Assembly (NCBI RefSeq): GCF_022376445.1
Contig: NW_025955000.1
Location: forward strand, 1 to 64,000
DNA: 64,000 nt
From: Fomitopsis serialis
Taxonomy: Eukaryota; Basidiomycota; Agaricomycetes; Polyporales; Fomitopsidaceae
Direction of reading: 5' to 3'
Under the pieces are notes generated by a model. That model saw nothing but the letters and a program-made list of their open reading frames with translations, ran no database searches and was not told the origin of the DNA. The translations under genes were made by a program, and so were the position numbers. Below are positions 33,305 to 63,367 of the stretch, piece by piece. Position 1 is the first letter of the stretch; the number at the start of each line of letters is the position of its first letter.

Positions 33305-33445
33305 CTTCTACATTTGGCACCCCAAGGACGTCTGGCAGGTGGCGCTGAACGTGCGAGTGCAGGAGGGCCAGGACGTGCGCTACCAGAAGTCCACAAGGAG
33401 GTGCCCCTCTGGTACCTCACACTTAATGAGTCCTCTCTACGCCAC
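33305..33445 (+). other. Coding-like fragment, unrecognised
   Basis: A block FYIWHPKDVWQVALNVRVQEGQDVRYQKST is followed in the next frame by KEVPLWYLTLN. It looks like frame-shifted coding sequence of a conserved protein, but no family was recognised. Confidence 0.3.
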
Positions 33446-34340: not shown

Positions 34341-35030
34341 TCCGGACACCGCTCGGTATTGAGACCTCAAACGAGGTCATGCAGAGCGATTTCGTGCCTC
34401 TCAGACCCGTCGCAGCGAAGTCGGTGTTGTTGGCGGTTCTGCTGGCTCCACGCCCGGTGACGACGGCGATCACTGTGCGCCCGGTGAGGTTGCAATCACA
34501 AAGCAGCCGCAGCTGTACGTGCCCAGGGCGTGGTACACCTCTGTGAATCACCTTGCTATTTCTACGTGGCTAGGGCCCAAGGTGGGATTGAACAGATAGA
34601 ACTATCTGTTCACGCTGTTGTTGGCGCGGAGCACGGCTTCCAGTGGTTGGGCTTCAAGTTGGGCGTGGAGACCTCTCTCACTTGGCGTCAACTTGGGCGG
34701 GAAGACCGCACTAGATGGCGCCGCGAAGGGGATGCTTATGACTAGATTACATATGCACGTCTACTATGGTTACACATGCATGTATGTAGCACACACCTCA
34801 CCAATTACACCCCTCTTCCTCTCTGGTCAGATGGACAGACGTTCAATCAAGTGGTGCTGCGTAAGATAGGCGTTATATTGACTCTATACACCATCCCTAC
34901 TACCCAACACAGGAGTCCGCACCCATGGTTCCCTGTGTGACCCTAGCTCCTCAATCTCAGGCTACGCCTTACACCTTCTCTACAATAAACAATAAAAATC
35001 AGAGGGGCACAGCGTTGAATCAGGGACAAC

Positions 35031-35620
35031 TCACTTGAGCGCTTGCTTCTGCGGCAAACATTGGGTAGACTTGCTGCGTTTGCGTGAACCGTTTGAGCGT
35101 TTGCGTGGCCCGGTGGTGGTCAATTCTTTCGCAGTAGACGAGGAAGTTGTAGAAGATGAGGAAGGCTTAGAAGACAAGGAAGTCGTAGTCGAGGAAGTGG
35201 GCTGTTGGGCAAGAGAAGGTATTCAGGGCTCATTGAAGCATGAAATAGAGGACACTCACCTTTCCCGCCTCGTCTTCGCTGTCTGAGACGAGGTCTATGA
35301 CCACTCGTTTTTGCGTACTTGTTTTGACCTTTGGGGCAGGTGGCGGAGGGAAGTGGGAATAATCCTGCGTGTTGAGATATCCACAGTATACGAAGCCATC
35401 TTCCTCTAATTTTGCCTTGTGAACTGCACTCTTCCCTACGTTGGCACGGTAGAAGCCAACGTATTGGACCTCAGGCTGTGGGAGGTTCTGCGCTGGGGCT
35501 GGCATAGATTCCAGAAGTTGCTGGGGAAGCACACACGTCAACCTTAATCGGGGTATAGCACTGGCAGGCGTGAGCTCACCTGCAAATGCGCAAACCCTGT
35601 CTCTTGTGGACGGCTTGTCT
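35031..35620 (-). pseudogene. C-terminal exons of an unrecognised basic protein
   Basis: Two exons are well supported by splice sites. The exon 35520-35263 gives LLESMPAPAQNLPQPEVQYVGFYRANVGKSAVHKAKLEEDGFVYCGYLNTQDYSHFPP and ends SDSEDEAGK at a GTGAGT donor. The exon 35201-35031 gives a Ser/Thr-rich then basic tail (GPRKRSNGSRKRSKSTQ...ALK) with stop at 35031. A preceding exon seems to start right of 35575 but loses coherence, so the gene is probably 5'-truncated. The acidic SDSED patch and basic tail suggest a nuclear protein. No family is recognised. Confidence 0.4.
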
Positions 35621-35838
35621 GTGTGTCCGGACGTCTATGGTGGCAGGCAAGCAACGTGGAGGGCGAGGTGTAGCAGTGGTGGCTCGAGTCGACCCGCGAT
35701 CGGGTTCGCCGAATTGAGCGCTTCAGACTTGCAGTTTCCGTCCTCTACCGTTACCGCTAGTCCGAGGATGAAGCTTTTGCGCCACGCGCCTCCGCCAGCA
35801 TCGCAACTCACGCCTGCCTCTCCTCTCGCTTCTCACGA

Positions 35839-35953
35839 GCACATTCAATACCCACCCGATTGGCTCGAAAGCCTCATTTTCGCACTTTTCGCATCGGAAA
35901 CAGCATAACGGAGGTGTCAGCAAGGCCCGGAACGTGCGAGAAAGTGGACACGG
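35839..35953 (-). repeat. Dispersed ~110-bp repeat R2, copy 2
   Basis: This is the inverted counterpart of 28153-28264 at about 80% identity by eye. It encodes FRCEKCENEAFEPIGWVLNV on the minus strand. Confidence 0.6.
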
Positions 35954-36458
35954 CTCTCGCTGCATCCTCGCATGCCCGTCCGTGTACGACTCGGCGCTGT
36001 CGACACTCCTCCGGTTCATTCATCACTCAGCCTACAGTGCTCCTCGGTGCCTTGATCTTGACCATGCTCATGCTTATTAGTATCCATAGGCCTCAAGTCG
36101 TTCTCGCCACTCTGCCTCGTACGTCCTCCTTCCAGCTGAGTATGACGTAACCTTCTGACCCTGACTCCTTGCGGTATTCCTGCATGTGTGGCGCTGGCTC
36201 CCAAGTGTCGTCCGCTCCGTCCTCGCTCTCGTGCTTGAGCATCGACGGCTGCCCCGCAAGTGTGCACCAAGCCGACACGCAAACGAGTGGGTAGGTAGGG
36301 AGGTGAGAGAGCGACTGGACGGGCGAGAGAGCGGGTGGTTGGGTGGGAGGGCGGGAGAGCGGACGAGTGGGGAGACTGGTGAGCTGGCGGGGAGGCGGGC
36401 GGGTGAATGGGTGGGCACAGGGCGTGCCATCACGCCGCACGACACACATTGACGGCGA

Positions 36459-36484
36459 CCACGCAGCGCGAATGCCCTGCGTGG
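36459..36484 (-). repeat. Conserved hairpin element, copy 5
   Basis: The arms CCACGCAG / CTGCGTGG enclose GGGCATTCGC-type core sequence, with one internal G-G mismatch. The flanking GTGGTCGCCGT matches copy 2. Confidence 0.6.
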
Positions 36485-36608
36485 AGACGCAGCCCACGAG
36501 TGGACTGCAGGCGAAGGAAGGTGAGTCCAGAGACGCGCCAGCGAGCTAGCTGTCCGCAAACACAGGGCGTGATGATGTGTAGCACAACACCCCACACGTC
36601 AACCGCGA

Positions 36609-36634
36609 GCGCGCTGGGCAACTGCCCAGCGCGC
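36609..36634 (-). repeat. Conserved hairpin element, copy 6
   Basis: The perfect 11-bp stem GCGCGCTGGGC / GCCCAGCGCGC has a four-base loop. On the minus strand it is preceded by TTGGCCGTGTCTGC and followed by TCGCGG, as in copies 1-3. Confidence 0.75.
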
Positions 36635-36650
36635 AGACACGGCCAACGAT

Positions 36651-38368
36651 TGGACGGCGTGTGCGTGAGCGAAGAGTGGGCGAGGCAGCCGCGTAAGGTT
36701 GGACACGGGTAGCACCACGGGTGCGCAGGGCGCATACCGCACCCGTGACCCGCGTACCCGTACCCGTCTGCATCACAAGCCTGACCAGCGGAGAACGAGG
36801 TATGTTCGACCGATCACTGCCTCTTGTCTGTCACAATGACAATTCAAAATCTCGTCGCCTCGCCGCCAAGGTGAGTAGTATAGTCTTATGGGCTCAAATC
36901 TCTAAATCGTTCCCGAGTATGCGGACAGAAGCCTGAAGCCCAAGAGGAAGTTGGGTGACAGGTCCTACCGCAGCCCATTGTCAGTCCAACTTCCTGCTCA
37001 CGAAAGCTCCAACCGTCGCTTATTGAAATAACTGAGCTCCAGTGCTCGCCATCTGTGAGGTAGGGTTGACATCACAGTGACGGTTTGCGTCTGTTCCTGG
37101 TCTCGTCTGAATTGCCTTGGAGACACATCCGTGCGTTGTAGCTCTCTTGTGTTTCCTCGCCATAGTGCTTGATATTTCGCTTAGAACTCGCAGGCACAGA
37201 CCTGAGACGGCGCTTACCACATCCTGACGCGCCGACCTCCCTCACGCTCTTAGACTGTCAATTCCACCTTCTTGACACCTTCTTCCCACTGTTTTTGACA
37301 CGTACAGTCCAGAAATAATATAGACAAGCCCGAAAGACAAGTATTTCATGACCTGGACACAGCACAAAGACAGACAAGGCGTGCCACGAGATGTGGCGCA
37401 GGCGTGTGGCGCAAAAGCCTCATCCTCGGACTAGCGGGCACCCGTAGTCCTTCCTCTGCCGCACATGCCCCAGCAAGTCACATAGGGACTGTGCTCCACG
37501 TTCAAGGTGTGGTGAAATTTCCATCACGCCATGTCTCTCAAACACTGTGCCTCCGTTCGCCTGTCTCAGTACGCTCACCTATCGCTTCACTAGGCTGTTC
37601 CGTCCTTACACACCAAACTCCCAAACCTGCTGGAAGCAGCAATTTCCGAGCTTGCGGTCTACTTCAGCAAGGCAATAGGACACAGACACGTATCAACTAC
37701 GGCAGCGGCATGGAGCTCAACTTTCTCTGCTGGTGGATCATCTGCCTGGAGCGGTTAGGAATCTTGCAAGAGAGCGATCAAGTTGCTCTTGTGATCAGAG
37801 TTTTTGAAGGTGCGTTGCCAGTCTTCAGCCTTGAATTCTCCGTCGAAGGCAGCTTTGGCTCAGTGTTCATTTTCTCATGCTTTGCAGATACGTTACGGTT
37901 ATGCGAGTCCTGCAGTCAACATACTGGCTGGAGCACGCGGGTTCCCATGGTGTCTTGTGCGAGGTCGGTTGATTCCCAGAGGACTCACCGGACGTGTTCG
38001 AGTTATGGCCATAAACATATCAAGCTGAAGTCCATTCATGACGCCGACTTCGTATTGCCTGTATCCAATCCATCAACTCTGTATGTCGTGTGTCACAATC
38101 CACGCCCCTCCCTCGCCTCCATGAGCCTTTGATTGATTGAGTGCCACACGCAGGTCAAGTCAACCTCGTAGATGGGAGTAACATTAGGCGTTAGGCTGGC
38201 TCTTATTATACGAAAGCCTACTCAACGTTTGACTCTACTGGCGTGGCGTAGTGAGTTGTGACGAGAGTGATGGCATCATCAGTGAGAGCGGCGTACAGCA
38301 ACAACATGGAGATAGCGATGGGCACAAAGCAAGACCAATAGAAGAAATATAGACAAGATAGCGGCCTT
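36651..38368. other. 1.7 kb with no recognised gene
   Basis: A 242-codon plus-strand ORF (37404-38132) exists but has no domain, no partner exons and an unbiased composition; it is not accepted as a gene. Nothing else is supported. Confidence 0.4.
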
Positions 38369-41527: not shown

Positions 41528-44500
41528 ATGGGCAAACGTAAACGCTTCCCTCACTTCTGTCCCTTGGGGGGTGAATTCTGCCCTGCTTGCGACGAGTGGT
41601 TTGAAACCGTCCCAAGTCTTATGTCCCATTTATCCAGCAGCAAGAGGTGTGCCTGGTATAAGAAGGGAAAGCTCAAGGCAGTGTTCCAGCCGTTAGCTGC
41701 AGCAACATCCTCAGAAGAGGAGGATTACCCGCCTGGGCCGCTTACTAGGTCAGTGGGATTTAGACCTGTTGATATTTCAGTCTTAAGGATTTCCAGCAGC
41801 GCCCACTCTCCCGGTCGACAAGAAAGCCCGTTTCCTCAGGCATCTGGCAGTTCCTCTTCTTATGGTAAGGTCCACTCCTTGGCGTACACTTGGAGCAGTT
41901 CGTTGGCAACTCATGGTGCAGGAAACAACGGCAACGAAGACGAAGGCGATGATAGAGAAGAAGAGGAAGAAGAGGAAGAAGAAGAACTTCTTGAGGACCT
42001 GGTCTTTGTCCCTGTAGCCGGGCCCAGTCAAGGGCACCAAGGCAATCCTGAAGGCGCTGAAAGCTCTACGTCAGGAGCCCTGAGACGACGTACTGCTCTA
42101 GCCCTGGACGATGATGATGACAGCCGTTTTGAGGTGGTTGATGAGAAGGCAGGGAAGGAGTATGGAGAAGGGCAGACGATGAAAGAGGCTTGGAGGAGAC
42201 GTTTTGCAGAGAGGAACAGCAAGGACGGCATAGGAGGCTCAGGTGATAGTACCGTCTTGTTCTCCACGAGCCCGTACTGATGCATCAACAGACGAGACCC
42301 GCTCTTTATGGGAGCCGTTTGAATCGGAGATGGACTGGCAGCTGGCGGCTTGGTGTGTCAAGTCGGGTGTGAGTCAAGGCTCAGTAGATGAATTGCTCAA
42401 CATACCTGGGGTACGTACGGTACGTTCGGAGAAGGGTCCAACCGCTGACAAGGGCACAGTTGCAAGACAGATTAGGGTTGTCATATCACAACATGCGTGC
42501 CCTACTGCAAAAGGTCGACTCCATACCTGAAAGAGCAACCTGGACGGAGCAATGGCTCACCTTTAAGGACCGCCCGGGCGAACGACATCTTGTGCAGATT
42601 CGTGACATTATCATGGCCATCAAGGCCTTGCTTGGCAACCCTGCACACGCCGACAAGATAGTATACCGTCCCCGCCGTATCTTTACGGACCGCTCAAAGA
42701 AAAACCGTATTTACTCTGAGATGTGGACTGGAAGGTGGTGGCACGCCGTCCAGGTGAGTGGCATAAGTGTATAGTATTTGCTGAGAGGTTGAGAGATCTG
42801 AACGTCTGCTCAGAGCCTGCTTCCTGACGGTGCTTCCCTAGCACCGGTCATTATCTCCACCGACAAGACTCAACTTACCCAGTTCTCAGGCAACAAGGCC
42901 GCCTATCCAGTGTACATGACGCTGGGGAATATACCTAAGGCCCTTCGGCGTAAACCCTCAGAACATGCCTGCATTCTCATAGGCTACCTCTCTGTCGACA
43001 AAGTCGACTCTACCGGCCTCTCTGAAGCAAAGCAGCGCGCCATGATGCAGCAGCTGTTCCACGCCTCCGTCAGGATGATCGTCGAGCCTCTCATTGAGGC
43101 AGGAAAGACAGGCCTTGACGTCACTGGGGGGGATGGAAAGGTTCGAAGGGTGTACCCAGTCCTAGCGGCGTACGTTGCAGACTATCCAGAGCAGTGTCTG
43201 GTGACCTGCTCCAAGTACGGAACCTGTGCCGTATGCCAGTGCCCAGAGTCTCAGCTTGAAGACGCCTCTTCCAAGACACCTAGGCGCCAAATATGGACCC
43301 TTGACGTACTCGAGAAGGCCAAAACCAAGGGAAGAAAGGGCAGCACAACGTTCTATAAGGCCTGCAAAGAATTCAATGTCTCTGGTTACGTGGTTAAGCC
43401 GTTCTGGAAGGATCTTCCATATACCGACATCCACCACGCAGTTACCCCCGACGTCTTGCACCAACTTTACCAAGGCGTCTTCAAGCACCTTGTGGAGTGG
43501 TGTGAGGATCTCTTGGATGAGGAGGAGCTGGACCTTAGGATCCGTTGTCTCCCGCCAGCGTTTGGAACGCGCCATTTCAAGAAGGGCATATCGGCCTTAT
43601 CTCAGGTTTCTGGCAGTGAGCGTAAAGACATGGCCCGTATCCTCCTAGGCTGTCTGGTGGGCTGCATCCCTAACGCCGTCATGCTCACATTCCGAGCTTT
43701 GCTAGACTTCATCTACCTGGCTCAGTATCCCACCCATGACGACACTACCCTATCCTACATGGAGGACGCCCTCAAGTTATTCCACAAGAACAAGGCTGTC
43801 CTTGTGACACTTGGGATACGTGAACATATGAACATACCAAAATTCCACTCTCTCCTCCACTACGTCGACTCTATTCGCTCTCTTGGCACCACTGACAACT
43901 ACAACACAGAAATGTTCGAACGCCTGCATATCGACTGTGCCAAAAAGGCCTGGCGTGCGTCCAACCACCGTGATGCCCGCCCCCAAATGGTGAAGTGGCT
44001 CCAACGCCAGGAAAAGATCGCAACATACGAGACTCTTCGTGAGAGGCTTGTGGAGGAGGAAGGAGATGCTCATGTGGATGGGGCCTCTGAGAACGGTCAG
44101 CACTGTCCCAGGGCTGGGATTGTGCTGGCAAAGCATCCCTCAGTGACGCAGCAGTCCCTCAACTCTATTGGCACAAAGCATCAAGCTCCCGGATTTTCCA
44201 AGGCCCTTCGCCAGTATATCTATCGCCTCAAACTTGGACGCCCGCTCACTAACAGAGAAGTAGAAGCCGCATTGTCGTACCTCCCATTTTCACGTCTAGA
44301 TGTCTTCCATGGGTTCAAGTTTACCACAATCCCCCTCAGCGACAGCAAACCAGAGCGTGATGCAGTCAAGGCACGCCCTGCCAGTGGTGAGCAGCCTGGC
44401 AGGTTTGATACCGTTGTTGTCCTGCAGGGCGAGGAGGCAGAGGCTACAGGTCTTCAAGGTACGTAATTCTGTATGTTTACTGCTTCAATTATGCTCAGCT

Positions 44501-52359: not shown

Positions 52360-55300
52360 ATGGCTACACGTCAGTCTCTCCGTAGTGCGGCACGCCAGCC
52401 CACCGGCCAGCCGACCACGAAGGCTAAGACTGGTCAGGCCGCTGTAAAGTCAGCGCCGGCTGCTAAGAAGTCCTCCACCGCTACGAAAGCCTCATCGAAG
52501 GGCGCCACGGGTTCCAAGCGCGGCAGGCAGGAAACCCCAGAGAGAAATGGCAAGACCTCCCAGCCCGACATTCTGTCCCCGTCCGAGAAGCGGTTGTACG
52601 ACAAGTTGAAAGCGAAGATGGAGCAGGCCGAGAAGCAGGCGGCGGCCGAACATCGATCCAGTGAGTGCTCAACTTCACGTTGATTGGGATGGACGACACG
52701 AAACGAATGCTGAACTCACAACAGACGTACGAAGGACGAGCACAGCTATGTTGCTAGAGGAGAACACGTCTGGCGCAGAGGACGAGGAGGATGAGGATGA
52801 GCAACCGAGGCGCAAGAAGCTGAAGAAGAACGTGGAGATCAGGCTCAGCGAGGATGAAGAACAGGACGAGCTTGTCGAGGAGGAGGAGGTGGCGGCGGAG
52901 GCGGAAGCGGAAGCAGAGGAGGAGATGCGAGTGGAGCCAGAGCGAGAGGTGGGCAATGCGAACGATGTGGATAATCCCCCAGAGGCACCTCTGCCTCCGC
53001 GCCGTGAGTCTTTTACACAAGCTAATAAGTATATCGAACTACTAACAGAAGTGGTATGCAAGCCAAACCTAAACCAAGGCCTGCGTTTGGTCGGAAGCCG
53101 GCGAACGAACCTGAGAAAGCCAAGAATGACCGGGGCGACACTTTGCTCGACGCAGACGAGCGTAACCTTGCGACAGCTCTCGGTATGTGGGTCCTCCCAT
53201 AGGTTCCTAGCTAATCTGCAAGCAACATCATAGGTAAGCCTCAATCGTCGTCAGCAACGTCAAAAAACAATCCGAAGGCAAGGCAGCGAAACAACCATGC
53301 TCATGGGGACAGTGGGTCAGAAGACGACGAAGAGCAACGCACTAACGTCACGCAGCGTGCCAAAGCCAAGAAAGTGTGGCGCATGGACGCCGTTGTCATT
53401 GACTCACCTCCAAAAAAGGTGAAGGTGAGTGCATCTTTATTTACTCATCTCAAACTATGATAGATTACGCAGCAGACGGTGGTCAACAAGAACAAGGGCA
53501 AGGGTGCGGCGGTCAAGACCAAGGGCAAGGGTGCAGCGGTTGAGAAGAACAAGGGCAAGGGTACGAGGGTCAACAAGAAGCAGAAGAAACAGCGCGACTG
53601 GTTGGACACCGACACCGAGTCGGAGAACAAGACCGAGCCGGACGCGGACGATACGGAAGAAGACCATGAGTCGGACAGTGACTCGGACAGCGACAGCGAC
53701 AGCGACGGCGACAGCGACGACGATGATTCGGAGGAAGACAGAGACGCGGAGGACGAGGCGATGGACGAGGACAGTGAGGATGAAGTGATCGTAAGTCAAT
53801 CGTCCCGCATTCACTGCTTTGTCGATGAAGTTCTGCAGGTTGTCAAGGCCCCGAAGAGTAAGGCCGGGCAGTCCAAAGGCAAGAGAAGCAAACGTAGCAG
53901 CAGCAGCGCGGCCGGGCAGAAGTCCGAAGGTCGTCGTCGTGCGCAGGCCAGGGACATCCCGGAGACCCTCAAGCCTATTGTTACGTGCTCACAGATGTAC
54001 CTCCGCCTCCGCCTCTCACTCGACCACGCGTGGACCTCCGAGAAGACGCAGAACAGCAGTCAGCTGCCCCACAAGCACCTCGTCATCAAGAGGGCCTTGA
54101 AGGACGCTCGCCGCCATCGCGCGGAGGACGGCAAGAAGATCGATTACCTTGTGTCAGGGTTCAAGACCCTGAAAAAGAAACGCAACCACGTTCTTCGCGA
54201 GAACGTCGCCAGTGTTGTAAGTCCCTTGTTCCTGACACATCAAACGAACTGAGTCTTGTTGCAGGTGTGGACAGGCGCGTCTCAGCTCCGAAACGAGGTC
54301 AAGAAGAAAGCGAAGATTGTGGTCGACAGTGCCTACGGCCTGGGAAGCCTCTCGACGCAGCGCAGAGTCGCAGCCGCAACATTCCTCCTCAAGTCGAACA
54401 CACAGGGCAAATTCTCAATGCCGAATTTTATCTTCGGCGAAATCGACATCGCCTGGCAGTCGGACGAACCTTACGAGGTCGACATGAAGGTATGTACAGT
54501 CATCTTGGATGTTTACTGCTTGTTCTTGAAGGGCCCCACAGGCGAGCGTCGTGAACCGCAAGAAACCGTTCCAGCACAAGGCGTTGTCCGACGTCATTGT
54601 GCAGCACTGGTTCCATGGACACAGGGACACTGCGTCAGTCGCAGCGTACGATCGGTTCAGTGAGGTTCCGAACAACCTCATAGCCCTCGTGTGCAATGCG
54701 GTAAGTTTTGTTCACGTTAGTTTATGGACGGCTGTAATACTGAACAATTCTTTTATAGATCGAGGCGGCGTTGGTGGACATAGCCACAGGGACTCACCAC
54801 TTCTCTAACAAGCTATATGCGGCCAAGTGAGTGTAACAGTCTGTCTAGCGTAGTGTTTCTCCCTCACGTGTGAGTAGGTGGATCAACATCATGGGCATCC
54901 TGGATCAGTTCGAAAGCAACGCATCGGAGGCGTACCAAGCTCTGAAGGAGATGATGTGGACCAATGTCAGGTAAGTGGCATTAATACTAACCTTCTAAAC
55001 GTCGAGTCTATCTCAATGTTGGTCCAGCGCACTCATCGATGAGCAGCAAGTCTCGAGATCGAAGGATAAGCAAGACGTCGCTGACGATGGTAGCCCTGGC
55101 GAGCAGTTCATCGCGTGGAGCGATGTAGAGGTCGGCGACACTAAGGCCACCGGAACGAAGGCTGCAAAGCCATCGTCAAAGCTGTCGTCTTCGAAACCGA
55201 CATCGTCGAAGCCGTCGTCTTCGAAGCCGACATCGTCGAAGCCGTCGTCATCGAAGCCGACATCGTCGAAGCCGACATCGTCGAAGCCGACATCGTCGAA

Positions 55301-55465
55301 GCCGACATCGTCGAAGCCGCCGTCGTCGAAGCCGCCGTCGTCAAAGACGACGACGTCGAAGGCGCCTGAGGGTAAGTGCATCACTGTCAATAGTATGTGT
55401 GTACAATGAACGATTGTTCCCCAGTCGAGCCTCAGGTCAACGAAGAAGAAGCTGGGCGTGTGTAA
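52360..55465 (+). CDS. DUF6532-like protein, copy B (3' end cut by an LTR)
   Basis: The ATG at 52360 (MATRQSLRSAARQ) starts a basic, Lys/Ala-rich N-terminus, followed by strongly acidic exons (EDEEDEDEQPRR, a DSDSDSDSDGDSDDD run near 53680-53730) and Lys/Gly repeats (KNKGKGAAVK). The conserved domain spans about 53950-55020: ITVCSQMYLRLRLSLDHAW, VWTGASQLRNEVKKKAKIVVDSAYGL, NRKKPFQHKALSDVIVQHWFHG, NNLIALVCN and HFSNKLYAAKWINIMG. It is followed by a Ser-Ser-Lys-Pro-Thr repeat region (55165-55370). The reading frame ends VNEEEAGRV with TAA at 55463, three bases inside the left LTR, so the original C-terminus is probably lost. Copy A carries a different, longer end. Introns are short and canonical. 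Confidence 0.7.
55165..55370 (+). repeat. 15-bp coding minisatellite (SSKPT repeats)
   Basis: TCGTCGAAGCCGACA-type units are repeated about twelve times in frame, encoding SSKP(T/S/P). Confidence 0.85.
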
Positions 55466-55661
55466 GGCGCCTTACTCGTCGTGCCTCGTATGCGCTGCAC
55501 CCAGTCTCTATTCAAGAGGTACTGTCTACAGATTGCATACAAAGGCGGTGACGAGGTAAAGGCTGAGGACTTGTAGGTGCACTGGCGCGCCATACGAGTC
55601 CTCGAGCAAACAAAGACAAACATTTAATGTAAGACATACCGTAACGGGAATATCCGTTACA
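55461..55661 (-). repeat. 3' LTR (201 bp)
   Basis: TG..CA-bounded direct repeat, identical by reading to 61520-61720. It is preceded on the minus strand by a polypurine tract. Confidence 0.9.
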
Positions 55662-55672
55662 CCCTCCCCCAC
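55662..55672 (-). other. Polypurine tract
   Basis: GTGGGGGAGGG on the minus strand directly abuts the 3' LTR. This is the expected position of the plus-strand primer in LTR elements. Confidence 0.7.
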
Positions 55673-55891
55673 TGGACACGACCACGGGTCCCAGCGATAA
55701 CCAGAGAAACAGATAGAAAAAGGAAAATGAAAGGAGACATATGCAACAACCCACCGGTGGTAGCAGTTGGCAAACAAAGATGATGTTGAACTGTAGACAA
55801 CAACATGTTAGATTGCGTCAGTGAGCAGACACAACCATTCATCATTGTCGTACATAACTCGACAAAGTTATGCAGGCCATAAGGTAAACTA

Positions 55892-58054
55892 CTACTCGGA
55901 CTCGGAGTAGTAGTCAGCATCTTCAGAGTTACCCTCATCGTCGGCAGATAGTGCAGAAGAGCTAAGGGTATCCTCCATCTCAGACTGCTCGTAGTAGTCA
56001 GAGACTACTACCGAGTTAGTCTCCTCAGACCCAGATCTTCGTGAGTCCCACGAGCTAAGATGCTCGGACTCGGAGGGATACTCCGACTCAACATGGTCAG
56101 GGTACTCCTCACGAGTCATGGTACGAGGCTCCTCATCAGAGGAGTTGTACCAGTCGGACTCATCCACTGGTTGTTGACGAGGTGGTACAACAAGCCATCC
56201 CAGCTTGTTGTAGGCCCAATGTCGTACCATCTCCATAGGAAGTGGTGCAACGAGCCGAGGATCAAACTCGAGTGGAACCACTTCCAACTCCCTCTGGAAG
56301 TGGTCCCATGCTCGACAAGCTGCACGAGAGTATGTCCCTGGTCGTGGGGACATATCCTCGATGGCCTGCCCACAGCTAAGGGCTGACCTCTTGCAGTGAG
56401 CCCAGATGTCCCACTCGCCAGTACTTGCCGCGACATCAGCCTCGTCGAAGTCATGCTCAAGCTGGTCTGCAAGGAGGGTGAAGCACTCCTCACGCGACAC
56501 CTTATCCGTGGGCCATCGACTCACGTCGACAGTCACTGGGTGACCCAGTGCAGTCGGTACTCGGTTTAATCCCAGTACTTCGTGGCGCGAGGTACTGGTT
56601 TCCGAAGTGATGTCGCGGCTGCGACGATCACGAGTATCCTGCACCTCGATTCGATCACTCGACGCATGCAGTACAGGTGGTACCTGCCTCAATGTTCGAC
56701 GTGAAGCCCGTACGTCGACATTGGACGTACGGCCTGTGACTACATCCAGTTCCAGTACATCACTATGTGATGTACTGGCCACTCGCACGGTATCCTGCAC
56801 GTCGAACCCCTGGCTCACTGTGCGACTGCCTGATCTTCGCGTCGAGTTCCCATGGGTGATCCGTAAGTCGAGCTCACGGCTTGACATCCGTGTCACTAGG
56901 GGATCCGGGACCAGTACATCTTCGCGTGGTGTACTGGTCATGGTGTGGATCAAGCGGTGGCTGCTCGAGGCCCCGCTCCCTTCCCCTCTCAAGAGAGTAA
57001 CCCCCCTCGTAGAGGAGGTAGCTCCTCCTTGCGCTCGCGCCGGCTCGGTCTTGGTACCATCAGTTGTAGATGAACGTCGCCGTTCGCCTGAATCCAATGG
57101 TTCCGGCCTTCGCATCGACTGAGCTTTGAGTCCCTCGAGATAGATCTGGAAACCTTTCAATGGATCCCGGGAACGCATCTCCGTTTGGGCACGCGGCGAC
57201 ACTCTAGTAGTCGCACGAGTCGACGCACTGGGCATTTGCATCCGCAAGAACGAAGGTTCGTTCTCGCCAGGTGTCCCTGATCCTGGAGCCACGGATGTGG
57301 ATCCGCCAGTTCGCGTCGATCCATTCGACTGTGCTGGGTCCAGGGAAGATAACAGCACATCCATCTTGGATGTGCTCGGCGGTAGCTCCCGGTCTCGTTC
57401 GCTAGACGCAACAAGTACTTCGCAGTATTTGGGCTGGTGCTCGCCGTCGAAGTACACGTCCAGATCGCGTCGGTCTTGCTGAACGCGACGTGCCGGCAGC
57501 ACGTAGCGTCCCGACGGTCGCCATTCAGGTCCGGGTGCAGTCCGTCGTACGTCTACATTTGTAGACGTACCGGCTGACTGGCCACGATTCGCGGGATTGA
57601 GCTCGCCTGTATCTTCGTCGAGGTCTGTTGCAGTGTGACACGGCGGTGACACTGCAACTATAGTAGGTGAGCTGGCGAGTACCGTGAGGTACTTGCCTTT
57701 GACAGGAGAAATGTCGTGTCCTTGTGCGGCACCCACTGCACTTGACGCAGGCAGAGACTTGAGTACCTTATGGTACTCGCACTGCTCATGAGGGTGCTCA
57801 TCGGCACCTACCTCAAGCTTGATGCTTGATGTCGGTACTACACCTGTATCGGAGAGGTGGGACGCGCCGGTAGTGCCTGTGTGCACCCCGGGCGCGCCGC
57901 CGTGCGTGCCAGCGGATGCGATTGCGATGTCGCTCCGTGGTGTGGATGGACCAGTGTCGATTGCGACGACCTTCGGGGTGGTCGCGATCGGTGGTGGTAT
58001 CGGAACAGGGGTGGTGACGGCAGGGCGAGTACCGTGAGGTACTCGCTTTTCGAG
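55892..58054 (-). CDS. LTR-element ORF2 (no known domain)
   Basis: A frame open from 58054 to the stop at 55892 (about 720 codons) lies in the -1 frame relative to ORF1 and overlaps it by about 217 bases. There is no ATG near its start (the first usable codon is GTG at 57886), so expression would need frameshifting, splicing or readthrough. The product is polar: Ser/Thr/Arg-rich with recurring S-T-x(4-6)-V-L-x-L-D units, then a more folded-looking part (REECFTLLADQLEHDFDEADV...WDIWAHCKRSALSCGQAIED; ACRAWDHFQRELEVVPLEFDP; MVRHWAYNKLGWLVVPP) and an acidic, Ser/Tyr-rich tail. No pol motif is visible. Many of the repeated units are encoded by inverted repeats. Confidence 0.6.
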   Translation of the reverse strand, partial: LEKRVPHGTRPAVTTPVPIPPPIATTPKVVAIDTGPSTPRSDIAIASAGTHGGAPGVHTGTTGASHLSDTGVVPTSSIKLEVGADEHPHEQCEYHKVLKSLPASSAVGAAQGHDISPVKGKYLTVLASSPTIVAVSPPCHTATDLDEDTGELNPANRGQSAGTSTNVDVRRTAPGPEWRPSGRYVLPARRVQQDRRDLDVYFDGEHQPKYCEVLVASSERDRELPPSTSKMDVLLSSLDPAQSNGSTRTGGSTSVAPGSGTPGENEPSFLRMQMPSASTRATTRVSPRAQTEMRSRDPLKGFQIYLEGLKAQSMRRPEPLDSGERRRSSTTDGTKTEPARAQGGATSSTRGVTLLRGEGSGASSSHRLIHTMTSTPREDVLVPDPLVTRMSSRELDLRITHGNSTRRSGSRTVSQGFDVQDTVRVASTSHSDVLELDVVTGRTSNVDVRASRRTLRQVPPVLHASSDRIEVQDTRDRRSRDITSETSTSRHEVLGLNRVPTALGHPVTVDVSRWPTDKVSREECFTLLADQLEHDFDEADVAASTGEWDIWAHCKRSALSCGQAIEDMSPRPGTYSRAACRAWDHFQRELEVVPLEFDPRLVAPLPMEMVRHWAYNKLGWLVVPPRQQPVDESDWYNSSDEEPRTMTREEYPDHVESEYPSESEHLSSWDSRRSGSEETNSVVVSDYYEQSEMEDTLSSSALSADDEGNSEDADYYSESE

Positions 58055-61000
58055 TCACTGTCGGGTTCCTCGAAACAGGCGTCGAACGAAGAGTCCGACG
58101 TCTGCGTGTGAGTCGCAGGGACTTTGGGTACGCCGGTCGAGCGCACTCGCCCACCGATCGTCCCGCACGGCCTGTCCGTGCTGGGCTCGACCTGTAGGTC
58201 GCCCCATGGGTCGATCATACCGTCGACATGCGTGGTGGCTGCCACGATAACCGCATTGGTTGTCGTGGTCGTCACGGGTGGTGGTGGCGGTGTAGGAGGA
58301 GGTGGTAGAGGCGGGGGAGGTACCTCCGACATGGACGTACCTCTGTCTTTCGAGCTCGCAGGTTCGTCTCCTTCGCCTACACCGCACCCTTCCTCCCCTC
58401 CTCCTTCTGCCAGACCCTCCTCATCTGACTCCTCTGTCTCTGCACTCTCATCCACGTCCCCCTCGTCCCCGGCCTGATCCGCCATCCGTCCTGCACTCGA
58501 TCTCCGGAGTGCGCGCGCGACCTCCGACTCGTGGTGCCTCTCGTAGTCGCCACCGATGTCGGGAGCCGCGAAGGAGTCGATGGGGAGTTGGGTAGGGGTC
58601 CCTAGGAGCGAGCCCTCGACGAGAACTGTGAAGTTCTCGTCGGGTTGACGGTCGGGATGCCGTTCTGGTCTGTCGGGGTCCGTAAGCGCCGGCTGCTGCA
58701 CTGGCAGTAGTGCAGCAGTCGAGTCGCGATCTCGAGCTAGCGCGTTCATTGTGAATACGCAAGCGTCGGACTGCGCGTTCGCAGGAGCACTGGGGTCGCA
58801 GAGAGATTGGTGGCTGCTGACAGTGCCGAGGTCTAGCAGCTGAACCGCGTGCGGTTCGGCTGCGCATGGACGGTCGCTCTGACGCACGGCCGTTGGGGCG
58901 ATACGTGCGTCCTGGGTCGCATGCGTGACGGTTCGGCAGCCGTCTGCGTCGACGTCGTGGCAAGACGACTGTCGGTCGTAAGTGGGGTCGTCCGGGGAAT
59001 CTGCCAGTTGAACCGTGGATGGTTCAGCTGCGCATACCCGAAGGAGTTGTGTTTGCACGTCCGTTAGGGCGGTACAAGCTTCTCGCGGAGAGGTCATACG
59101 CTGAGGGTCGCTCGCCATAACCCTTGCGGGATCGAGCGCGTTGCGGGAGAGATCGTCGGGGTCGTCCAATGGCTCGGCCAGCTGAACCAAATGAGGTTCA
59201 GCTGTGCTGAAGCAGTCGGACGCCTGTACTTCCGTGAGGATGTGCAAGGTGTCTTGAGGCGCAGTTGAGTGCGCGATGCGACTGGCCGACGAGGAGTCAG
59301 CGAACACCGCGTCACATCCAGTCGAGGTTGAATGGGGCACATCGGACCTGCATCGCTGCTGGTCCGTTGTGCCGCCTTGCGAAATGAATAGTACGACCTC
59401 GCGGTCGTCCTCTAACACCGGCGCTCCGTCTTGCAGAGTGGGGGGTACGATCCTTGGGTCGCCCCGCGGCGCGATCGTACCCTCTCCATCGCTAGCAATG
59501 CGCGCGGCGAACTTCACGTTCGTCGCTACGATTGCCTGTGCGGGCACCGTCAAGGAGGGAGATATCGAGGCGGATACGTCCGTCTGGGGCGTATCCGCTA
59601 CTCGATATCCGGTCGAGAAATTATGGGGCACGTCGGACGTGCAGTACTGCGCGTCCGTCGTATTGCCTTGCAAAGTGGAGGGTCCGGGTACGACCTCAGG
59701 GTCGTACCGCAGCTCCCGTGGGACATCCGGTACGACTTCGCAGTTGTACCTGTGGGCGGAAGTGCCATATTCGTGGCCAGTAGTGCGCACGACGAGCCTT
59801 ACGTTCGTCGAGACGCCTACTGGCGCGGATACAGGGGGCATGGAGGGTACGACCTGGAGGTCGTCCCGCAGCACCTTGGGCGTGCTACCACCCGGAACAT
59901 CAGGTACGACTTCGCAGTCGTGCCTGGGGACGTAGTTGCCATCTTCGTGGCTAGCAGTGCGCACGACGAGCTTCTTGTTCGTCGCTACGCCTGCTAGCAC
60001 GGGCACGGGAAGCGGGGGCTGCGATGCAGGAACGTACAGTGAGTACGTACCTGTGGTGGTCGAGCCTTCGGGCTCATGCTTCCTGCTCGCCCAGCACCCT
60101 TCCTCCCTCTGTCCCTGCGTTCCCTCCTCATCCTCGCTACTCCTCTGCCCCCTGTCCTTCTTCCGTTCTCCTCGATCTGCGTTGTCCATGGTCCGCTCAG
60201 TCTCGCTACTCGGCGTTGGACTTGAACGCGCGTCGTTCAAGTCCTGGGTCGCGTGGCTGGGTTGCGTGTCGCCAGAGCCGCGGTATCGGTCGCCAGAGTT
60301 ATCGGACTCGAGGAGGGGACCACCCAAGTCGAGGCGAGAGGCAAGAGGGGAGAGGTGAAGAGCCGGGGATGGAGGAAGTGGCGATCTGGTACCGGGAGGT
60401 ACCAGGTCGGTCGCCACTGACTGGACTGGCGGTAAGTCAGCCAGCCAGTCGCAAACACGAGTTCGCACTCGCGTTGGGACGGCGCGCGCGTCTGGTTCGC
60501 CAGACGGGCGCTCGAGGTGGCTGCCCAGAGAGTGGAGGTGGTCGAGAACGGCGGGTCGGTGGTGGCGGTCGAGCGTAGTGCGGTAGGCGCTAGCACGCGG
60601 GGCGCTCGCCACGGACTCGTGACGCTCAACGCTCGTAGCGTTGAGCGCGTCGCGCGTCGCGTCGAGCCGGCTGCTCGTCGTGGCGCGCACGTCGTTCGAC
60701 AGTGGCAATATATTTTTTGTATCGCGGCTCATTTCTGAGCGCGCGACGAGGGTATCTAGGGGCGTGGGCTCGCTTCCACTGTACATAGTACTACTACTGT
60801 AGTACTGTGTGCCTATACCCTCCCGAACCTGGAGATGCGTCGACTCGACGCACCGCTCGCTCAGTTCGGGTTCGAGCTCGGCGCCAGGCCTGTCGTCGAA
60901 CTCGGCGCGTGCACCATCCTTCGGGAGGGTGCCCGGCTTCGCTGCTTGGGCTGGAGCTGCCCGGGATAGTGTTTCCGGGTGGCTCTGAGCAGACCCAACG

Positions 61001-61398
61001 GTGGGCTCGGGCTGCTCTGTGCCCAGTGCGTGTTCGACCTCACGGTCGGACGGCGCCTGCTCCGTGGGTGCTCCGGCTGAGTTCTCCTGGTCGGAGGACT
61101 CAGTCCGAGCGGTCTGCGCGCGCGATGAACGGCCGCTACTGCTGCTGCTCGCCGCCGACAGTGCCTCGTCGACGGCGTCCATCAGATCCTTGCGGGTCTG
61201 CTTGGACTCTTCGAGCGCGGCATTAATCCGCTGCTGACTCGCCGCGGCTTCGGCGAGTGTATGCTCGAGCCGCTCTTGGCTCGCGGCGAGCTTGGACTTG
61301 ATCTCCGCTCGCAACGCCTTGAGCTTGCTGCGGGTTCCACTACGGGTTCCGCGGTTGCTCCGGGTTGCTTCGGAGGGGTTGGTTGTCGATCCAGACAT
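57838..61398 (-). CDS. LTR-element ORF1, Gag-like position (1186 aa)
   Basis: The ATG at 61398 opens 122 bases inside the 5' LTR, the usual place of Gag. Residues 1-90 are basic and then a predicted coiled coil (SKLKALRAEIKSKLAASQERLEHTLAEAAASQQRINAALEE), as in many Ty3-type Gag N-termini. The remaining 1,100 residues are low-complexity and contain two diverged repeat families: units with TNxRLVVRTxxHExGT..HRxxCEVVPDVP..DDLxVVPS (about 59.3-60.1 kb) and units with CAAEPHxVQLxDxxDDP (about 58.7-59.3 kb). A Pro-rich segment (PPPPLPPPPTPPPPP) lies near the C-terminus. No capsid, zinc knuckle, protease or polymerase motif was recognised. Its length without a stop, despite repeat expansion, argues that it is translated. 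Confidence 0.6.
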   Translation of the reverse strand: MSGSTTNPSEATRSNRGTRSGTRSKLKALRAEIKSKLAASQERLEHTLAEAAASQQRINAALEESKQTRKDLMDAVDEALSAASSSSSGRSSRAQTARTESSDQENSAGAPTEQAPSDREVEHALGTEQPEPTVGSAQSHPETLSRAAPAQAAKPGTLPKDGARAEFDDRPGAELEPELSERCVESTHLQVREGIGTQYYSSSTMYSGSEPTPLDTLVARSEMSRDTKNILPLSNDVRATTSSRLDATRDALNATSVERHESVASAPRASAYRTTLDRHHRPAVLDHLHSLGSHLERPSGEPDARAVPTRVRTRVCDWLADLPPVQSVATDLVPPGTRSPLPPSPALHLSPLASRLDLGGPLLESDNSGDRYRGSGDTQPSHATQDLNDARSSPTPSSETERTMDNADRGERKKDRGQRSSEDEEGTQGQREEGCWASRKHEPEGSTTTGTYSLYVPASQPPLPVPVLAGVATNKKLVVRTASHEDGNYVPRHDCEVVPDVPGGSTPKVLRDDLQVVPSMPPVSAPVGVSTNVRLVVRTTGHEYGTSAHRYNCEVVPDVPRELRYDPEVVPGPSTLQGNTTDAQYCTSDVPHNFSTGYRVADTPQTDVSASISPSLTVPAQAIVATNVKFAARIASDGEGTIAPRGDPRIVPPTLQDGAPVLEDDREVVLFISQGGTTDQQRCRSDVPHSTSTGCDAVFADSSSASRIAHSTAPQDTLHILTEVQASDCFSTAEPHLVQLAEPLDDPDDLSRNALDPARVMASDPQRMTSPREACTALTDVQTQLLRVCAAEPSTVQLADSPDDPTYDRQSSCHDVDADGCRTVTHATQDARIAPTAVRQSDRPCAAEPHAVQLLDLGTVSSHQSLCDPSAPANAQSDACVFTMNALARDRDSTAALLPVQQPALTDPDRPERHPDRQPDENFTVLVEGSLLGTPTQLPIDSFAAPDIGGDYERHHESEVARALRRSSAGRMADQAGDEGDVDESAETEESDEEGLAEGGGEEGCGVGEGDEPASSKDRGTSMSEVPPPPLPPPPTPPPPPVTTTTTNAVIVAATTHVDGMIDPWGDLQVEPSTDRPCGTIGGRVRSTGVPKVPATHTQTSDSSFDACFEEPDSDSKSEYLTVLALPSPPLFRYHHRSRPPRRSSQSTLVHPHHGATSQSHPLARTAARPGCTQALPARPTSPIQV
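58025..58046. repeat. Hairpin at the start of the ORF1/ORF2 overlap
   Basis: The perfect 9-bp arms GCGAGTACC and GGTACTCGC have loop GTGA. On the minus strand it follows an AAAA run (58050-58047) at the point where the -1 frame first becomes open. Confidence 0.85.
58617..58642. repeat. Perfect 11-bp hairpin in ORF1
   Basis: The arms CGACGAGAACT / AGTTCTCGTCG have loop GTGA. This is one of at least 25 similar structures between 55.9 and 61.0 kb. Confidence 0.85.
60623..60647. repeat. Perfect 11-bp hairpin in ORF1 (3-nt loop)
   Basis: CGCTCAACGCT-CGT-AGCGTTGAGCG. Confidence 0.85.
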
Positions 61399-61519
61399 CC
61401 TGTCGAGGTCTTCCTGGGCCGACTAGAGGGTTTGATAGAGCATAGAGTTCGAGTTTCGAGATGTTGTTGCCTAGAGTAGAAAATCCCCAGAATAGAAGCT
61501 TTTCTGGAGCGCAAAAAAG

Positions 61520-61720
61520 TGTAAGGCGCCTTACTCGTCGTGCCTCGTATGCGCTGCACCCAGTCTCTATTCAAGAGGTACTGTCTACAGATTGCATACA
61601 AAGGCGGTGACGAGGTAAAGGCTGAGGACTTGTAGGTGCACTGGCGCGCCATACGAGTCCTCGAGCAAACAAAGACAAACATTTAATGTAAGACATACCG
61701 TAACGGGAATATCCGTTACA
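61520..61720 (-). repeat. 5' LTR (201 bp)
   Basis: Identical by reading to 55461-55661. On the minus strand it begins TGTAACGGATATTCCCGTTA and ends CCTTACA. Confidence 0.9.
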
Positions 61721-63146
61721 CTCAGCCTCTTCAGAGCGTGTACATGCTCGATGAAAGTAAAGGTACGTCCAAACTTGGTAATATACATTATGACGAAACG
61801 TCGTACTCACGCCCATTCAGTTCCAAGCGCAGGGAAGGTGTATGAAGACCTCGCGAAGATGGAAATCACACCCAAGGGGAAGTTCGCGGCCGCAGCAGCA
61901 GACAAGGTACCACAGGGGACGACAAACTTCTTCATTAAGGCACTGGATCTTGAGAAGCGACAGTAAGTCTACGTACATCCCAATAAGGAGCTGGATTGAC
62001 GCCGTCTGCAGGTACGAACTTCGTACGAAACTCAAGAAGGCGTTAAGAGGCCATGCCGAACTGGTGGAGGACGACTCGGGGGTCGCTGGAGTCGGCACCG
62101 AGCGACGTGTGCTACGTCGTGAATTGGAGAAGTGGCGCGACCTTCAGAGCTCGCTCATGCCTCACATCAACTTCCCAGACGTCGACGGCGACGACGGCGA
62201 TGACGACGATCACGACGACGACGACGACGACGGGGGTAGCGGTCGGCCTGAAGACGAGCCTCTCGCCCTCCCATCCGACTTCTCGGCAGCTGAGCGCAAC
62301 ACGCTCGGCCTGGAGGCGCAGGCGGTCTTCGAACGCCGTGTTCGACATGGCCGTGCGTACGACCTTCTCGCTGCAGTCAAAGAGTCTATCAATCACCAGG
62401 GCGCATTCCTCGAGGACAAACAAAAGCACGCGCGTGGTCAGAAAGACAACACTCGCTCTCAAAAGCAGGTGTCCAACGCGACCGCACGCACGCGCATGCT
62501 GGCCGGGCTCTACAATTACAACCGCGACCGCCTCATTGCATTGAGCGATGGCATTGCGGAGGACGTCCTACAGGCGATCAACATGGAAACGGACCTCAAG
62601 AGTAAGAATTGGCGCAAGCCGCGACAGCAAGGGGACAGCCGCGAAGAACGGGCATGGATCTGGACGGTCATCCCCCCGTGGACGACCGAAGACGATGCGG
62701 AAGCATGGGAACTCGAAGGCGAGTGGTTCGTCTATCCCAATTGCTAGTACTAACAACTCGCTAGTCGACCGGGTACAATGGTTCCGCGCTCGGGCGGAGG
62801 TGAAGCGAGTGAACGAGGAAATCAACAAGCTTCATGCCGAGTTCAAGAGGACGATCCTCGGTTTCAAGAACATGTCTAGAGCTTGGGAACAGGTCTCGGC
62901 GAAGGCAGGGTTGTCCGATGGGGCGAGAGCGTATGCGCTGAGGAAAGTGAATATGTTCAACAAGCTAAGCGTCCAATGCGCGGACGTTTTCGGGACTACA
63001 CGAAAGGATGCCGCAGAGAAGTGGGACTACTCGATTGTAAGTTCCAATTAATGATGCGGGCACCGACTCATGTTCATTCCCTCCAGTCCTCAAGTACATC
63101 CACGCCAGCTGACACCGGCCAGGGGAAGGGGAAGGAGAAGGAGTAG
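61721..63146 (+). pseudogene. KDZ transposase C-terminal remnant
   Basis: This is the last part of a KDZ (Kyakuja-Dileera-Zisupton) transposase. Exons read SVYMLDES, VYEDLAKMEITPKGKFAAAAADKVPQGTTNFFIKALDLEKRQ, an acidic linker encoded by a GAC run (62190-62235), then LEAQAVFERRVRHGRAYDLLAAVKESINHQGAFLEDKQKHARGQKDNTRSQKQV (the conserved RxGxAxDxLxxVR...RGQxxNTR pattern), MLAGLYNYNRDRLIAL, ERAWIWTV, and WFRARAEVKRVNEEINKLHAEFKRTILGF...AYALRKV. It ends KGKEKE with TAG at 63146. The entire catalytic core and the cysteine cluster expected upstream are absent, because the LTR element begins immediately to the left at 61720. Within the preserved part no stop was noticed. Confidence 0.7.
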
Positions 63147-63244: not shown

Positions 63245-63367
63245 CTACCCGCCACCCCGCTATCGACGTCGCCGTCCTACCCGCCACCCCGCTATCGTCG
63301 TCGCCGTCCTACCCCCCATCCCGCTATCGTCGTCGCCGTCCTACCCCCCATCCCGCAAGCGTCGTCG
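63245..63367 (+). repeat. 32-bp tandem repeat, about 3.8 units
   Basis: CTACCCGCCACCCCGCTATC plus GTCGTCGCCGTC units are in tandem. Two early units have CCCGCCA and two later ones CCCCCCAT. Confidence 0.85.

What the first reader, a model, noticed from the sequence alone, without database searches (positions are those of the whole stretch)
55889..60935. LTR element whose long ORFs are punctuated by dozens of short hairpins
Reading the interior of the element I find at least 25 inverted repeats with 6-12 bp arms and mostly 3-8 nt loops, roughly one every 100-200 bases. Examples: 55889-55913, 55991-56011, 56187-56211, 56277-56304, 56534-56550, 56708-56732, 56752-56778 (12-bp arms), 57547-57570, 57761-57778, 58025-58046, 58617-58642, 58693-58718, 59180-59203, 59687-59708, 60386-60405, 60489-60506, 60623-60647, 60836-60852. 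The loop GTGA recurs (57684, 58034, 58628), and TTCG appears in two others. The hairpins lie inside two ORFs of 1186 and about 720 codons that stay open. I know of no described fungal retroelement with this architecture. Possible roles: RNA packaging or dimerisation, evasion or triggering of RNA silencing, or scars of repeated snap-back replication.
Basis: seen in the sequence. Interest (0 to 1): 0.88.

Follow-up and report, generated by a model that had tools for sequence, protein, structure and literature searches.

The report
Hairpin-studded retrotransposon pair in a fungus
A family of mobile elements in a wood-rotting fungus carries dozens of short fold-back hairpins inside its protein-coding sequence, the hairpins are kept by evolution even where the protein does not care, and a related element that can make its own copying enzyme has the same peculiarity, but what the hairpins do is not known.

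Summary
All 18 listed inverted repeats exist, far above chance: 19-30 perfect hairpins per ORF in 8 copies with a long intact ORF, against means of 2.1-2.5 in codon-preserving shuffles. The host is Fomitopsis serialis (Polyporales). The element is a recently active, non-autonomous LTR retrotransposon family; 17 full-length copies were studied. Eight have one ORF of 1509-1832 aa; in the window copy it is split.

The hairpins are conserved. Six sites occur in 17 of 17 copies. Fourfold-degenerate sites in stems diverge 0.068, against 0.157-0.175 outside. Compensated pairs number 182 against 62 expected. A Ty3/Gypsy element sharing the primer-binding region, 3'UTR and LTR end, the likely mobilising partner, is also hairpin-rich (20 and 16 against about 0.6 per ORF); an 80%-identical sister has only a weak excess and four other retroelement ORFs none.

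So a nucleic-acid structure is probably under selection. G-U is tolerated no better than A-C and loops show no strand preference, so an ordinary sense-RNA fold is not proven; single-stranded cDNA is possible. Snap-back scars as main cause failed a direct test. Function is inferred: a distributed signal in particle assembly or reverse transcription.

The parts
55461..61720 (-). whole LTR element, coding strand minus; no target-site duplication found in this copy (15 of 17 copies have a 5-bp one)
61520..61720 (-). 5' LTR (201 bp, identical to the other)
55461..55661 (-). 3' LTR (201 bp)
61506..61519 (-). presumed primer-binding region CTTTTTTGCGCTCC; CTTTTTTACGCTCC stands behind the 5' LTR of the Gypsy partner (L043)
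55662..55672 (-). presumed polypurine tract GTGGGGGAGGG
   Evidence: direct reading
55655..55873 (-). 3' untranslated tract with LTR edge, 70.6% identical over 221 aligned nt to that of the Gypsy partner
57838..61398 (-). ORF of 1186 aa, first part of what is one long ORF in 8 of 17 copies; N-terminal 100 aa conserved
55892..57886 (-). ORF of 664 aa, second part; C-terminal 200 aa conserved
55853..55872 (-). hairpin in the 3'UTR, 7-bp arms, also present in the Gypsy partner in the homologous tract
55888..55914 (-). hairpin, 10-bp arms, over the stop codon; site in 17 of 17 copies
55991..56011 (-). hairpin, 9-bp arms; 17 of 17 copies
56186..56212 (-). hairpin, 10-bp arms; 16 of 17 copies
56277..56304 (-). 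hairpin, 10-bp arms; 17 of 17 copies
56331..56354 (-). hairpin, 8-bp arms
56534..56550 (-). hairpin, 8-bp arms, loop 1 (3 when one pair is opened)
56708..56732 (-). hairpin, 9-bp arms
56752..56778 (-). hairpin, 12-bp arms
56909..56939 (-). hairpin, 10-bp arms, loop 11
57247..57264 (-). hairpin, 8-bp arms; 9 distinct sequences at this site in 15 copies, with compensated pairs
57354..57376 (-). hairpin, 10-bp arms; A-T/G-C and C-G/T-A compensations among copies
57547..57570 (-). hairpin, 11-bp arms
57761..57778 (-). hairpin, 7-bp arms
58025..58046 (-). hairpin, 9-bp arms, loop UCAC in the sense strand
58617..58642 (-). hairpin, 11-bp arms; site in 17 of 17 copies, compensated A-T to G-C
58693..58718 (-). 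hairpin, 10-bp arms
59179..59204 (-). hairpin, 10-bp arms
59687..59708 (-). hairpin, 9-bp arms
60218..60244 (-). hairpin, 11-bp arms
60386..60405 (-). hairpin, 8-bp arms; site in 17 of 17 copies
60489..60506 (-). hairpin, 7-bp arms
60623..60647 (-). hairpin, 11-bp arms
60787..60806 (-). hairpin, 8-bp arms; site in 17 of 17 copies
60836..60852 (-). hairpin, 8-bp arms
61237..61258 (-). hairpin, 8-bp arms

Best explanation
The element is a young, non-autonomous relative or parasite of a Ty3/Gypsy retrotransposon (the C158 type) with which it shares the primer-binding region, 3'UTR/polypurine tract and LTR end. In both partners the coding sequence doubles as an array of short perfect fold-back hairpins (about one per 250 nt in the non-autonomous ORF; 4-nt loops commonest, C-G pairs favoured next to the loop), and in the non-autonomous family the hairpins are under selection at the nucleic-acid level. 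Shown: density, conservation and compensation in the non-autonomous family; density in the partner; only a weak excess in a close Gypsy sister. Inferred: the hairpins fold in the single-stranded intermediate (genomic RNA or its cDNA) and act there as a distributed signal, most likely for packaging/condensation by the partner's Gag or for reverse transcription, which would be why two elements with largely unlike coding sequences have the same architecture.
For: Density 19-30 vs 2.1-2.5 in synonymous shuffles in 8 of 8 long ORFs. 67 hairpin sites over 17 copies, six in 17 of 17. Loop-length peak at 4 nt (76 vs 4.4; related copies counted separately), excess at 1-8 and 11-13. Fourfold silent divergence in stems 0.068 vs 0.157 (near) and 0.175 (far), 59 of 60 triples, 0 of 300 circular shifts, also in well-aligned windows (stem/non-stem 0.056/0.126, 0.034/0.071, 0.011/0.028). 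Compensated pairs 182 vs 62 +/- 6.7, 0 of 2000. Gypsy partner L036: 20 and 16 hairpins in its two long ORFs vs 0.60 and 0.65; RT-integrase of its relatives C12 and C374 19 and 18 vs 0.70 and 0.60. Shared primer-binding region, 3'UTR and LTR end. Sister C46 (80% aa): 3 vs 0.45 in RT-IN and 4 vs 0.82 in gag; C457:219832 (55% aa): 1 vs 0.46; four other Gypsy/Copia ORFs 0-2 vs 0.5-0.7. The same stem bias (C at the two positions before the loop, 0.50-0.60) in both partners.
Against: Changes that make G-U in the sense strand are tolerated no better than A-C or transversions (obs/exp 0.25, 0.27, 0.20 over 10 copies; 0.27, 0.25, 0.24 in codon alignments; 0.20, 0.18, 0.22 at third positions), and A>G, the mildest change in an RNA stem, is the most constrained transition in two of the three data sets. 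Independent single mismatches are 30 A-C to 25 G-U. GNRA loops: 8 sense, 9 antisense of 75; partner 3 and 2 of 24. Folding z-scores are alike on both strands. No common loop sequence. In the partner, slow silent evolution of stems is not established: with C158 stems, C158 vs C12 differ at 0.030 (n=33) against 0.316, but that choice is biased; with C12 stems the values are 0.240 (n=50) against 0.293; and comparisons with C46 show no slowing (0.62-0.65 against 0.55-0.56). Smaller loop-length excesses occur at 24-26 nt too (30 vs 6.5). Partnership rests on shared non-coding ends, not on a mobility test. No Gag-RNA data. C46 has a weak excess, so the feature is not all-or-none.
Confidence: 0.45

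Rival explanations
1. Fold-back in DNA: the hairpins work in single-stranded minus- or plus-strand cDNA, or as cruciforms in the integrated copy, not in RNA.
For: Strand symmetry of mismatch tolerance, loops and folding energy; perfect Watson-Crick arms. Distinct one-mismatch hairpins even lean to A-C (63 to 26), the G-T of the antisense strand, but one vote per site removes the lean (30 to 25).
Against: No known function of this kind in LTR elements (recalled); C-G closure next to the loop is favoured by RNA parameters (-0.39 kcal/mol) and not by the DNA parameters used (0.00).
Confidence: 0.25
2. Mutational origin: an error-prone reverse transcriptase of this lineage creates and repairs palindromes by snap-back template switching; no function needed.
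For: Two exact loop inversions (TCAC/GTGA and GCGA/TCGC) and five near ones among 48 equal-length loop pairs at the same sites; concentration in one RT lineage and its likely client; arm homogenisation and spacer inversion are known marks of this process (PMC8604942, abstract and discussion read; PMC8794818, abstract and two sections read).
Against: Changes fall on both arms (max-arm share 0.692 vs 0.711 expected, 31 sites). Unbiased arm conversion should not slow silent divergence (argument, not a call), yet stems are 2.3-2.6 times slower. Two-sided changes (130 of 5252 pair cells) are far rarer than neutral divergence would give. C46, with an RT region 80% identical, has few hairpins.
Confidence: 0.17
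3. Silencing-related role: hairpins shield the transcript from, or feed, host small-RNA or DNA-methylation machinery.
For: Recent activity (14 of 17 LTR pairs identical) would make evasion useful; selection on structure beyond the protein.
Against: Stems of 8-12 bp are too short for Dicer (recalled); hairpins cover only a small part of the length; no small-RNA data were available.
Confidence: 0.08
4. By-product of repeated peptide motifs (for example DDLxVVP) or of tandem duplication of hairpin-bearing units.
For: Some hairpins recur in related sequence at several places (GAGTACC, GGTACGACC, CAGCTGAACC families).
Against: Shuffling synonymous codons, which keeps the peptide, removes about 90% of hairpins; hairpins lie in all three codon registers, roughly in the proportions of shuffles; enzyme domains of the Gypsy partner carry them as well.
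Confidence: 0.03

Closest known systems
Coding palindromes of Nematomorpha mitochondrial genes (PMC6649704; abstract, discussion and found passages read)
   Same: Numerous perfect inverted repeats inside conserved protein-coding sequence, built by codon choice, gained and lost between relatives.
   Different: There up to 284 bp long, in mtDNA, no excess of imperfect ones, a conversion mechanism such as template switching discussed by the authors; here 7-12 bp arms, imperfect ones also common, slow silent evolution of stems, a retrotransposon.
Non-autonomous LTR elements: LARD and TR-GAG (search listings only)
   Same: LTRs with priming sites, internal region without pol, presumed trans-mobilisation; structure of the LARD internal domain has been discussed (recalled).
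   Different: Here an ORF of up to 1832 aa under protein selection, without a Pfam match in the window copy, and dozens of conserved local hairpins.
Ty3/Gypsy (Tf1/Tf2-like integrase SH3) retrotransposons
   Same: Partner L036 has RVT_1, RNase H, H2C2 and rve integrase and SH3_Tf2-1; 5-bp target duplications in the non-autonomous family.
   Different: No hairpin excess in the four Gypsy/Copia ORFs tested as controls.
Dispersed packaging-signal hairpins of RNA viruses (search listing only)
   Same: Many short stem-loops along a coding genome, proposed to be read by a coat protein.
   Different: There a shared motif in the sense RNA (recalled); here no loop consensus and no strand bias.

Membership tests
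Non-autonomous LTR retrotransposon | identical or near-identical LTRs with TG..CA ends | tested here: met
   LTR pairs 100% identical in 14 of 17 copies, 97.5-99.0% in the others
Non-autonomous LTR retrotransposon | target-site duplication | tested here: met
   5 bp in 15 of 17 copies (L019 and L020 share theirs); none in the window copy and L017
Non-autonomous LTR retrotransposon | no reverse transcriptase or integrase of its own | tested here: met
   window ORFs P0001 and P0002: no Pfam match at a curated cut-off; the other copies were not scanned
Non-autonomous LTR retrotransposon | shares priming sites with an autonomous element | tested here: met
   primer-binding region, 3'UTR and LTR end shared with L036/L043
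Non-autonomous LTR retrotransposon | moved in trans by that element | not testable with these tools
   needs an experiment
TR-GAG (non-autonomous element with a gag gene) | gag homology | tested here: inconclusive
   weak N-terminal similarity to partner gag (best tblastn E 7.9e-6 for L023 without filter or composition correction); hhalign probability 2.3
Functional RNA secondary structure | compensatory changes above expectation | tested here: met
   182 vs 62 +/- 6.7, not corrected for relatedness
Functional RNA secondary structure | G-U tolerated better than A-C in stems | tested here: not met
Functional RNA secondary structure | stable loop families enriched on the transcribed strand | tested here: not met
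   GNRA 8 sense, 9 antisense of 75 four-nt loops
Functional RNA secondary structure | match to a described RNA family | tested here: not met
   Rfam, window 55300-61900, E up to 1: none
Template-switch (snap-back) palindromes | one arm replaced by the complement of the other | tested here: not met
   31 sites
Template-switch (snap-back) palindromes | spacer inversion | tested here: inconclusive
   2 exact and 5 near inversions of 48 loop pairs

The most novel reading that the evidence does not exclude
A Gypsy retrotransposon lineage and its non-autonomous client have evolved, through codon choice, a hairpin code spread along the whole coding sequence that marks their RNA or cDNA as genome to be packaged and copied, a new kind of membership signal in retroelements that works by many interchangeable perfect hairpins and not by one packaging site.
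Probability: 0.25. Interest if true: 0.88.

Novelty: new variant of a known kind. Interest (0 to 1): 0.74.

Why it matters
It is a clear case in which an RNA-copied mobile element carries two superposed codes, protein and dozens of fold-back structures, both with measurable signs of selection, in a family whose likely autonomous partner has the same peculiarity. That makes the question of how non-autonomous elements are recognised in trans directly testable, and offers a natural contrast (C158 type rich in hairpins, C46 type nearly without, RT regions 80% identical) inside one genome.

Tried and rejected
Chance or composition: rejected by codon-preserving and block shuffles. Genome-wide RT artefact: not supported, four other retroelement ORFs have 0-2 hairpins and seven window open frames of at least 300 codons 0-2. 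Conservation bias from choosing hairpins in one of the two copies compared: the first test had this fault; replaced by the three-copy design and repeated in well-aligned windows. The same design could not show slow stem evolution in the Gypsy partner, because only C46, nearly without hairpins, was at hand as a close third sequence. Sense-RNA wobble test: negative; an apparent lean towards the antisense strand vanished with one vote per site. Counting double changes with slid partners (192 at the true register, 92-145 at slid ones) was not a fair control for complementarity and was replaced by the permutation. One-arm replacement: negative. Codon register: roughly as in shuffles; partner ORF2 has 3 of 20 in the 3-3 register against 0.40 expected, the direction reported for Nematomorpha. 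AlphaFold of the C-terminal domain: mean pLDDT 42.7, not used. Solved-structure search: no hit at E 0.01. Rfam: none. Whether the Rhodofomes roseus relative keeps the hairpins could not be read from its protein alone (41 compatible sites vs 34.5 +/- 5.4 shuffled). Literature: no description of hairpin-dense LTR retrotransposons among the rows listed (top rows only, open-licence library).

Rows dropped before counts: L025 (upstream LTR hit of only 64 nt) and L026-L030 (one LTR hit each), so 17 of 23 places used; L019 and L020 have the same flanks and may be one insertion; LTR searching scored 40 of 82 candidates, so copy number is a lower bound. Gapped cells were set aside in the pair counts. 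The codon tests used 6 of the 8 long ORFs, and the first wobble table used 10 of 17 copies.
Full report
What was checked. The window is G000:C335:1-64000 of a 66.2-Mb assembly in 806 contigs. The only protein matching the C-terminal domain at E <= 0.001 among 1701 candidates is B0H18DRAFT_1211770 of Fomitopsis serialis, which is letter for letter the window's two frames joined by a predicted intron of about 60 nt near 57970-58030, so the host is F. serialis (Polyporales). The element spans 55461-61720 and is coded on the minus strand. Its 201-bp LTRs are identical.

Hairpins in the window copy. With arms of at least 8 and loops of at most 10, the element has 22 and the other 57.7 kb have 23. 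With loops up to 12 the element has 25, and block shuffles give 1.4 (max 4 of 30).

Other copies. LTR searching scored 40 of 82 candidates; 17 full-length copies with paired LTRs were used. Fifteen have a 5-bp target duplication and 14 have identical LTRs, while internal regions differ by up to 26%: several lineages were active recently. Internal regions hold 22-32 perfect hairpins each. Eight copies have one ORF of 1509-1832 aa. Pairwise dN/dS is 0.50-0.70 in 26 of 28 pairs (0.34 and 0.86 in the two closest), with low pN in the first 100 and last 200 alignment columns: a real protein, fast-evolving in the middle. The window ORFs have no Pfam match at a cut-off. A profile search (capped at 7990 candidates) found six proteins: the window's own, four more of F. 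serialis and one of Rhodofomes roseus, which shares the N-terminal part and, weakly, the C-terminal tip.

Beyond chance. In the 8 long ORFs, perfect hairpins number 29, 23, 24, 25, 20, 25, 30 and 19; 60 synonymous shuffles each give means of 2.13-2.48 and maxima of 5-7. Loop lengths peak at 4 nt (76 observed, 4.4 expected, seven related ORFs) with excess at 1-8 and 11-13, and a smaller one at 24-26. Folding energy is far below synonymous shuffles, z -11.4, -12.3 and -18.0 for the sense strand and -16.7, -12.0 and -15.0 for the antisense strand, in the 3 copies tested.

Conservation and selection. The 17 copies hold 488 hairpins (loops up to 12) at 67 aligned sites, six in all 17. With hairpins defined in a third copy, so that choosing them does not bias the pair compared, fourfold sites in stems diverge 0.068 against 0.157 within 15 codons and 0.175 elsewhere; 59 of 60 triples agree and none of 300 circular shifts is as low. 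In windows of at least 60, 80 and 95% protein identity the values are 0.056/0.126, 0.034/0.071 and 0.011/0.028. Pairs changed on both sides and still Watson-Crick number 182 against 62.0 +/- 6.7 in 2000 permutations over 269 comparisons; copies are related, so this is not a true probability. Together these are hard to explain without selection on pairing.

The likely partner. The 3'UTR search found three places at 70% identity, C158, C718 and C25; reverse transcriptase matches lie about 5 kb upstream in the first two and about 11 kb upstream in the third. C158 (L036, L043) is a Ty3/Gypsy element with RVT_1, RNase H, integrase and SH3_Tf2-1 domains, an extra 3' region, and a 5' LTR followed by CTTTTTTACGCTCC, against CTTTTTTGCGCTCC in the window element. 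Shared sequence found is limited to this, the 3'UTR (about 220 nt, 70%) and the LTR end (about 60 nt, 77%); coding parts show only weak N-terminal similarity. Its two long ORFs carry 20 and 16 hairpins against 0.60 and 0.65, inside RT, RNase H and integrase among others. RT-integrase of C12 and C374 (93-94% aa) carries 19 and 18 against 0.70 and 0.60, of the sister C46 (80%) 3 against 0.45 (max 3 of 200) and of C457:219832 (55%) 1 against 0.46; C46 gag has 4 against 0.82 (max 3 of 60). Six C158 hairpins lie on peptides identical in C46 whose pairing there is imperfect, so codon changes account for the difference at these sites; which state is older was not settled. Three further sets of the non-autonomous family (L035, L037, L038) are hairpin-rich too. 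Slow silent evolution of stems, shown for the non-autonomous family, is not established for the partner: the biased pairwise values are 0.030 (n=33) against 0.316 with C158 stems and 0.240 (n=50) against 0.293 with C12 stems, and comparisons through C46 give 0.62-0.65 in stems against 0.55-0.56.

RNA or DNA, and which process. The stems favour C before the loop in both elements (0.60 and 0.52, 0.50 and 0.56 at the last two positions), but loops share no motif and no strand preference. G-U-making changes are not favoured. This is unlike rRNA, where GNRA loops are 36-fold commoner than their complements (PMC8794818, section read). It does not exclude RNA, since a demand for high stability could act against all mismatches, but single-stranded cDNA remains open. 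Template switching was tested because its known marks are arm homogenisation and spacer inversion (PMC8604942, abstract and discussion read; PMC8794818, abstract and two sections read). There are 2 exact loop inversions among 48 loop pairs, but arm changes are not one-sided and stem silent sites are slow. It may be a minor route, not the main cause.

Verdict. The best reading is a selected array of fold-back structures in a Gypsy/non-autonomous pair, acting in the single-stranded stage of the life cycle; the exact role is inferred. The closest published parallel found is the coding palindromes of Nematomorpha mitochondria (PMC6649704; abstract, discussion and passages read), which differ in length, setting and perfection.

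Noticed in passing
window 32000-37000: A second hairpin-dense patch: 10 perfect inverted repeats against 0.8 in shuffles (max 4 of 30); pieces of it are repeated in the genome. Not identified.
   Followed up: partly
window 4640-4688: Perfect palindrome with 24-bp arms and a 1-nt centre.
   Followed up: no
window 55171-55366: 15-bp tandem repeat (TCGAAGCCGACATCG type), apparently coding, just beside the element.
   Followed up: no
window 63245-63367: Tandem repeat of 32 bp, at least three units.
   Followed up: no
window 55461 and 61720 flanks: The window copy has identical LTRs but no target-site duplication, and L017 shares its upstream 12-nt flank with L021 but not the downstream one: exchange between copies is likely.
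   Followed up: partly
window 57970-58046: NCBI gene model B0H18DRAFT_1211770 bridges the break between the two frames by a predicted intron of about 60 nt that starts inside the hairpin at 58025-58046; long ORFs of other copies run through, so the intron is probably an annotation artefact.
   Followed up: partly
window 42910-44466 and 1546-3115: Plavaka transposase ORF; 42473-44049 has an inverted 74%-identical partner at 1546-3115.
   Followed up: no
L036:6600-9040: The Gypsy partner has about 2.4 kb between its pol region and the 3'UTR with further open stretches and hairpins; the 310-aa piece tested has no Pfam match.
   Followed up: no
copies of the element, internal regions: Identity to the window copy jumps in blocks (for example L023: 96% then 81%), the mark of mosaic recombination.
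   Followed up: no
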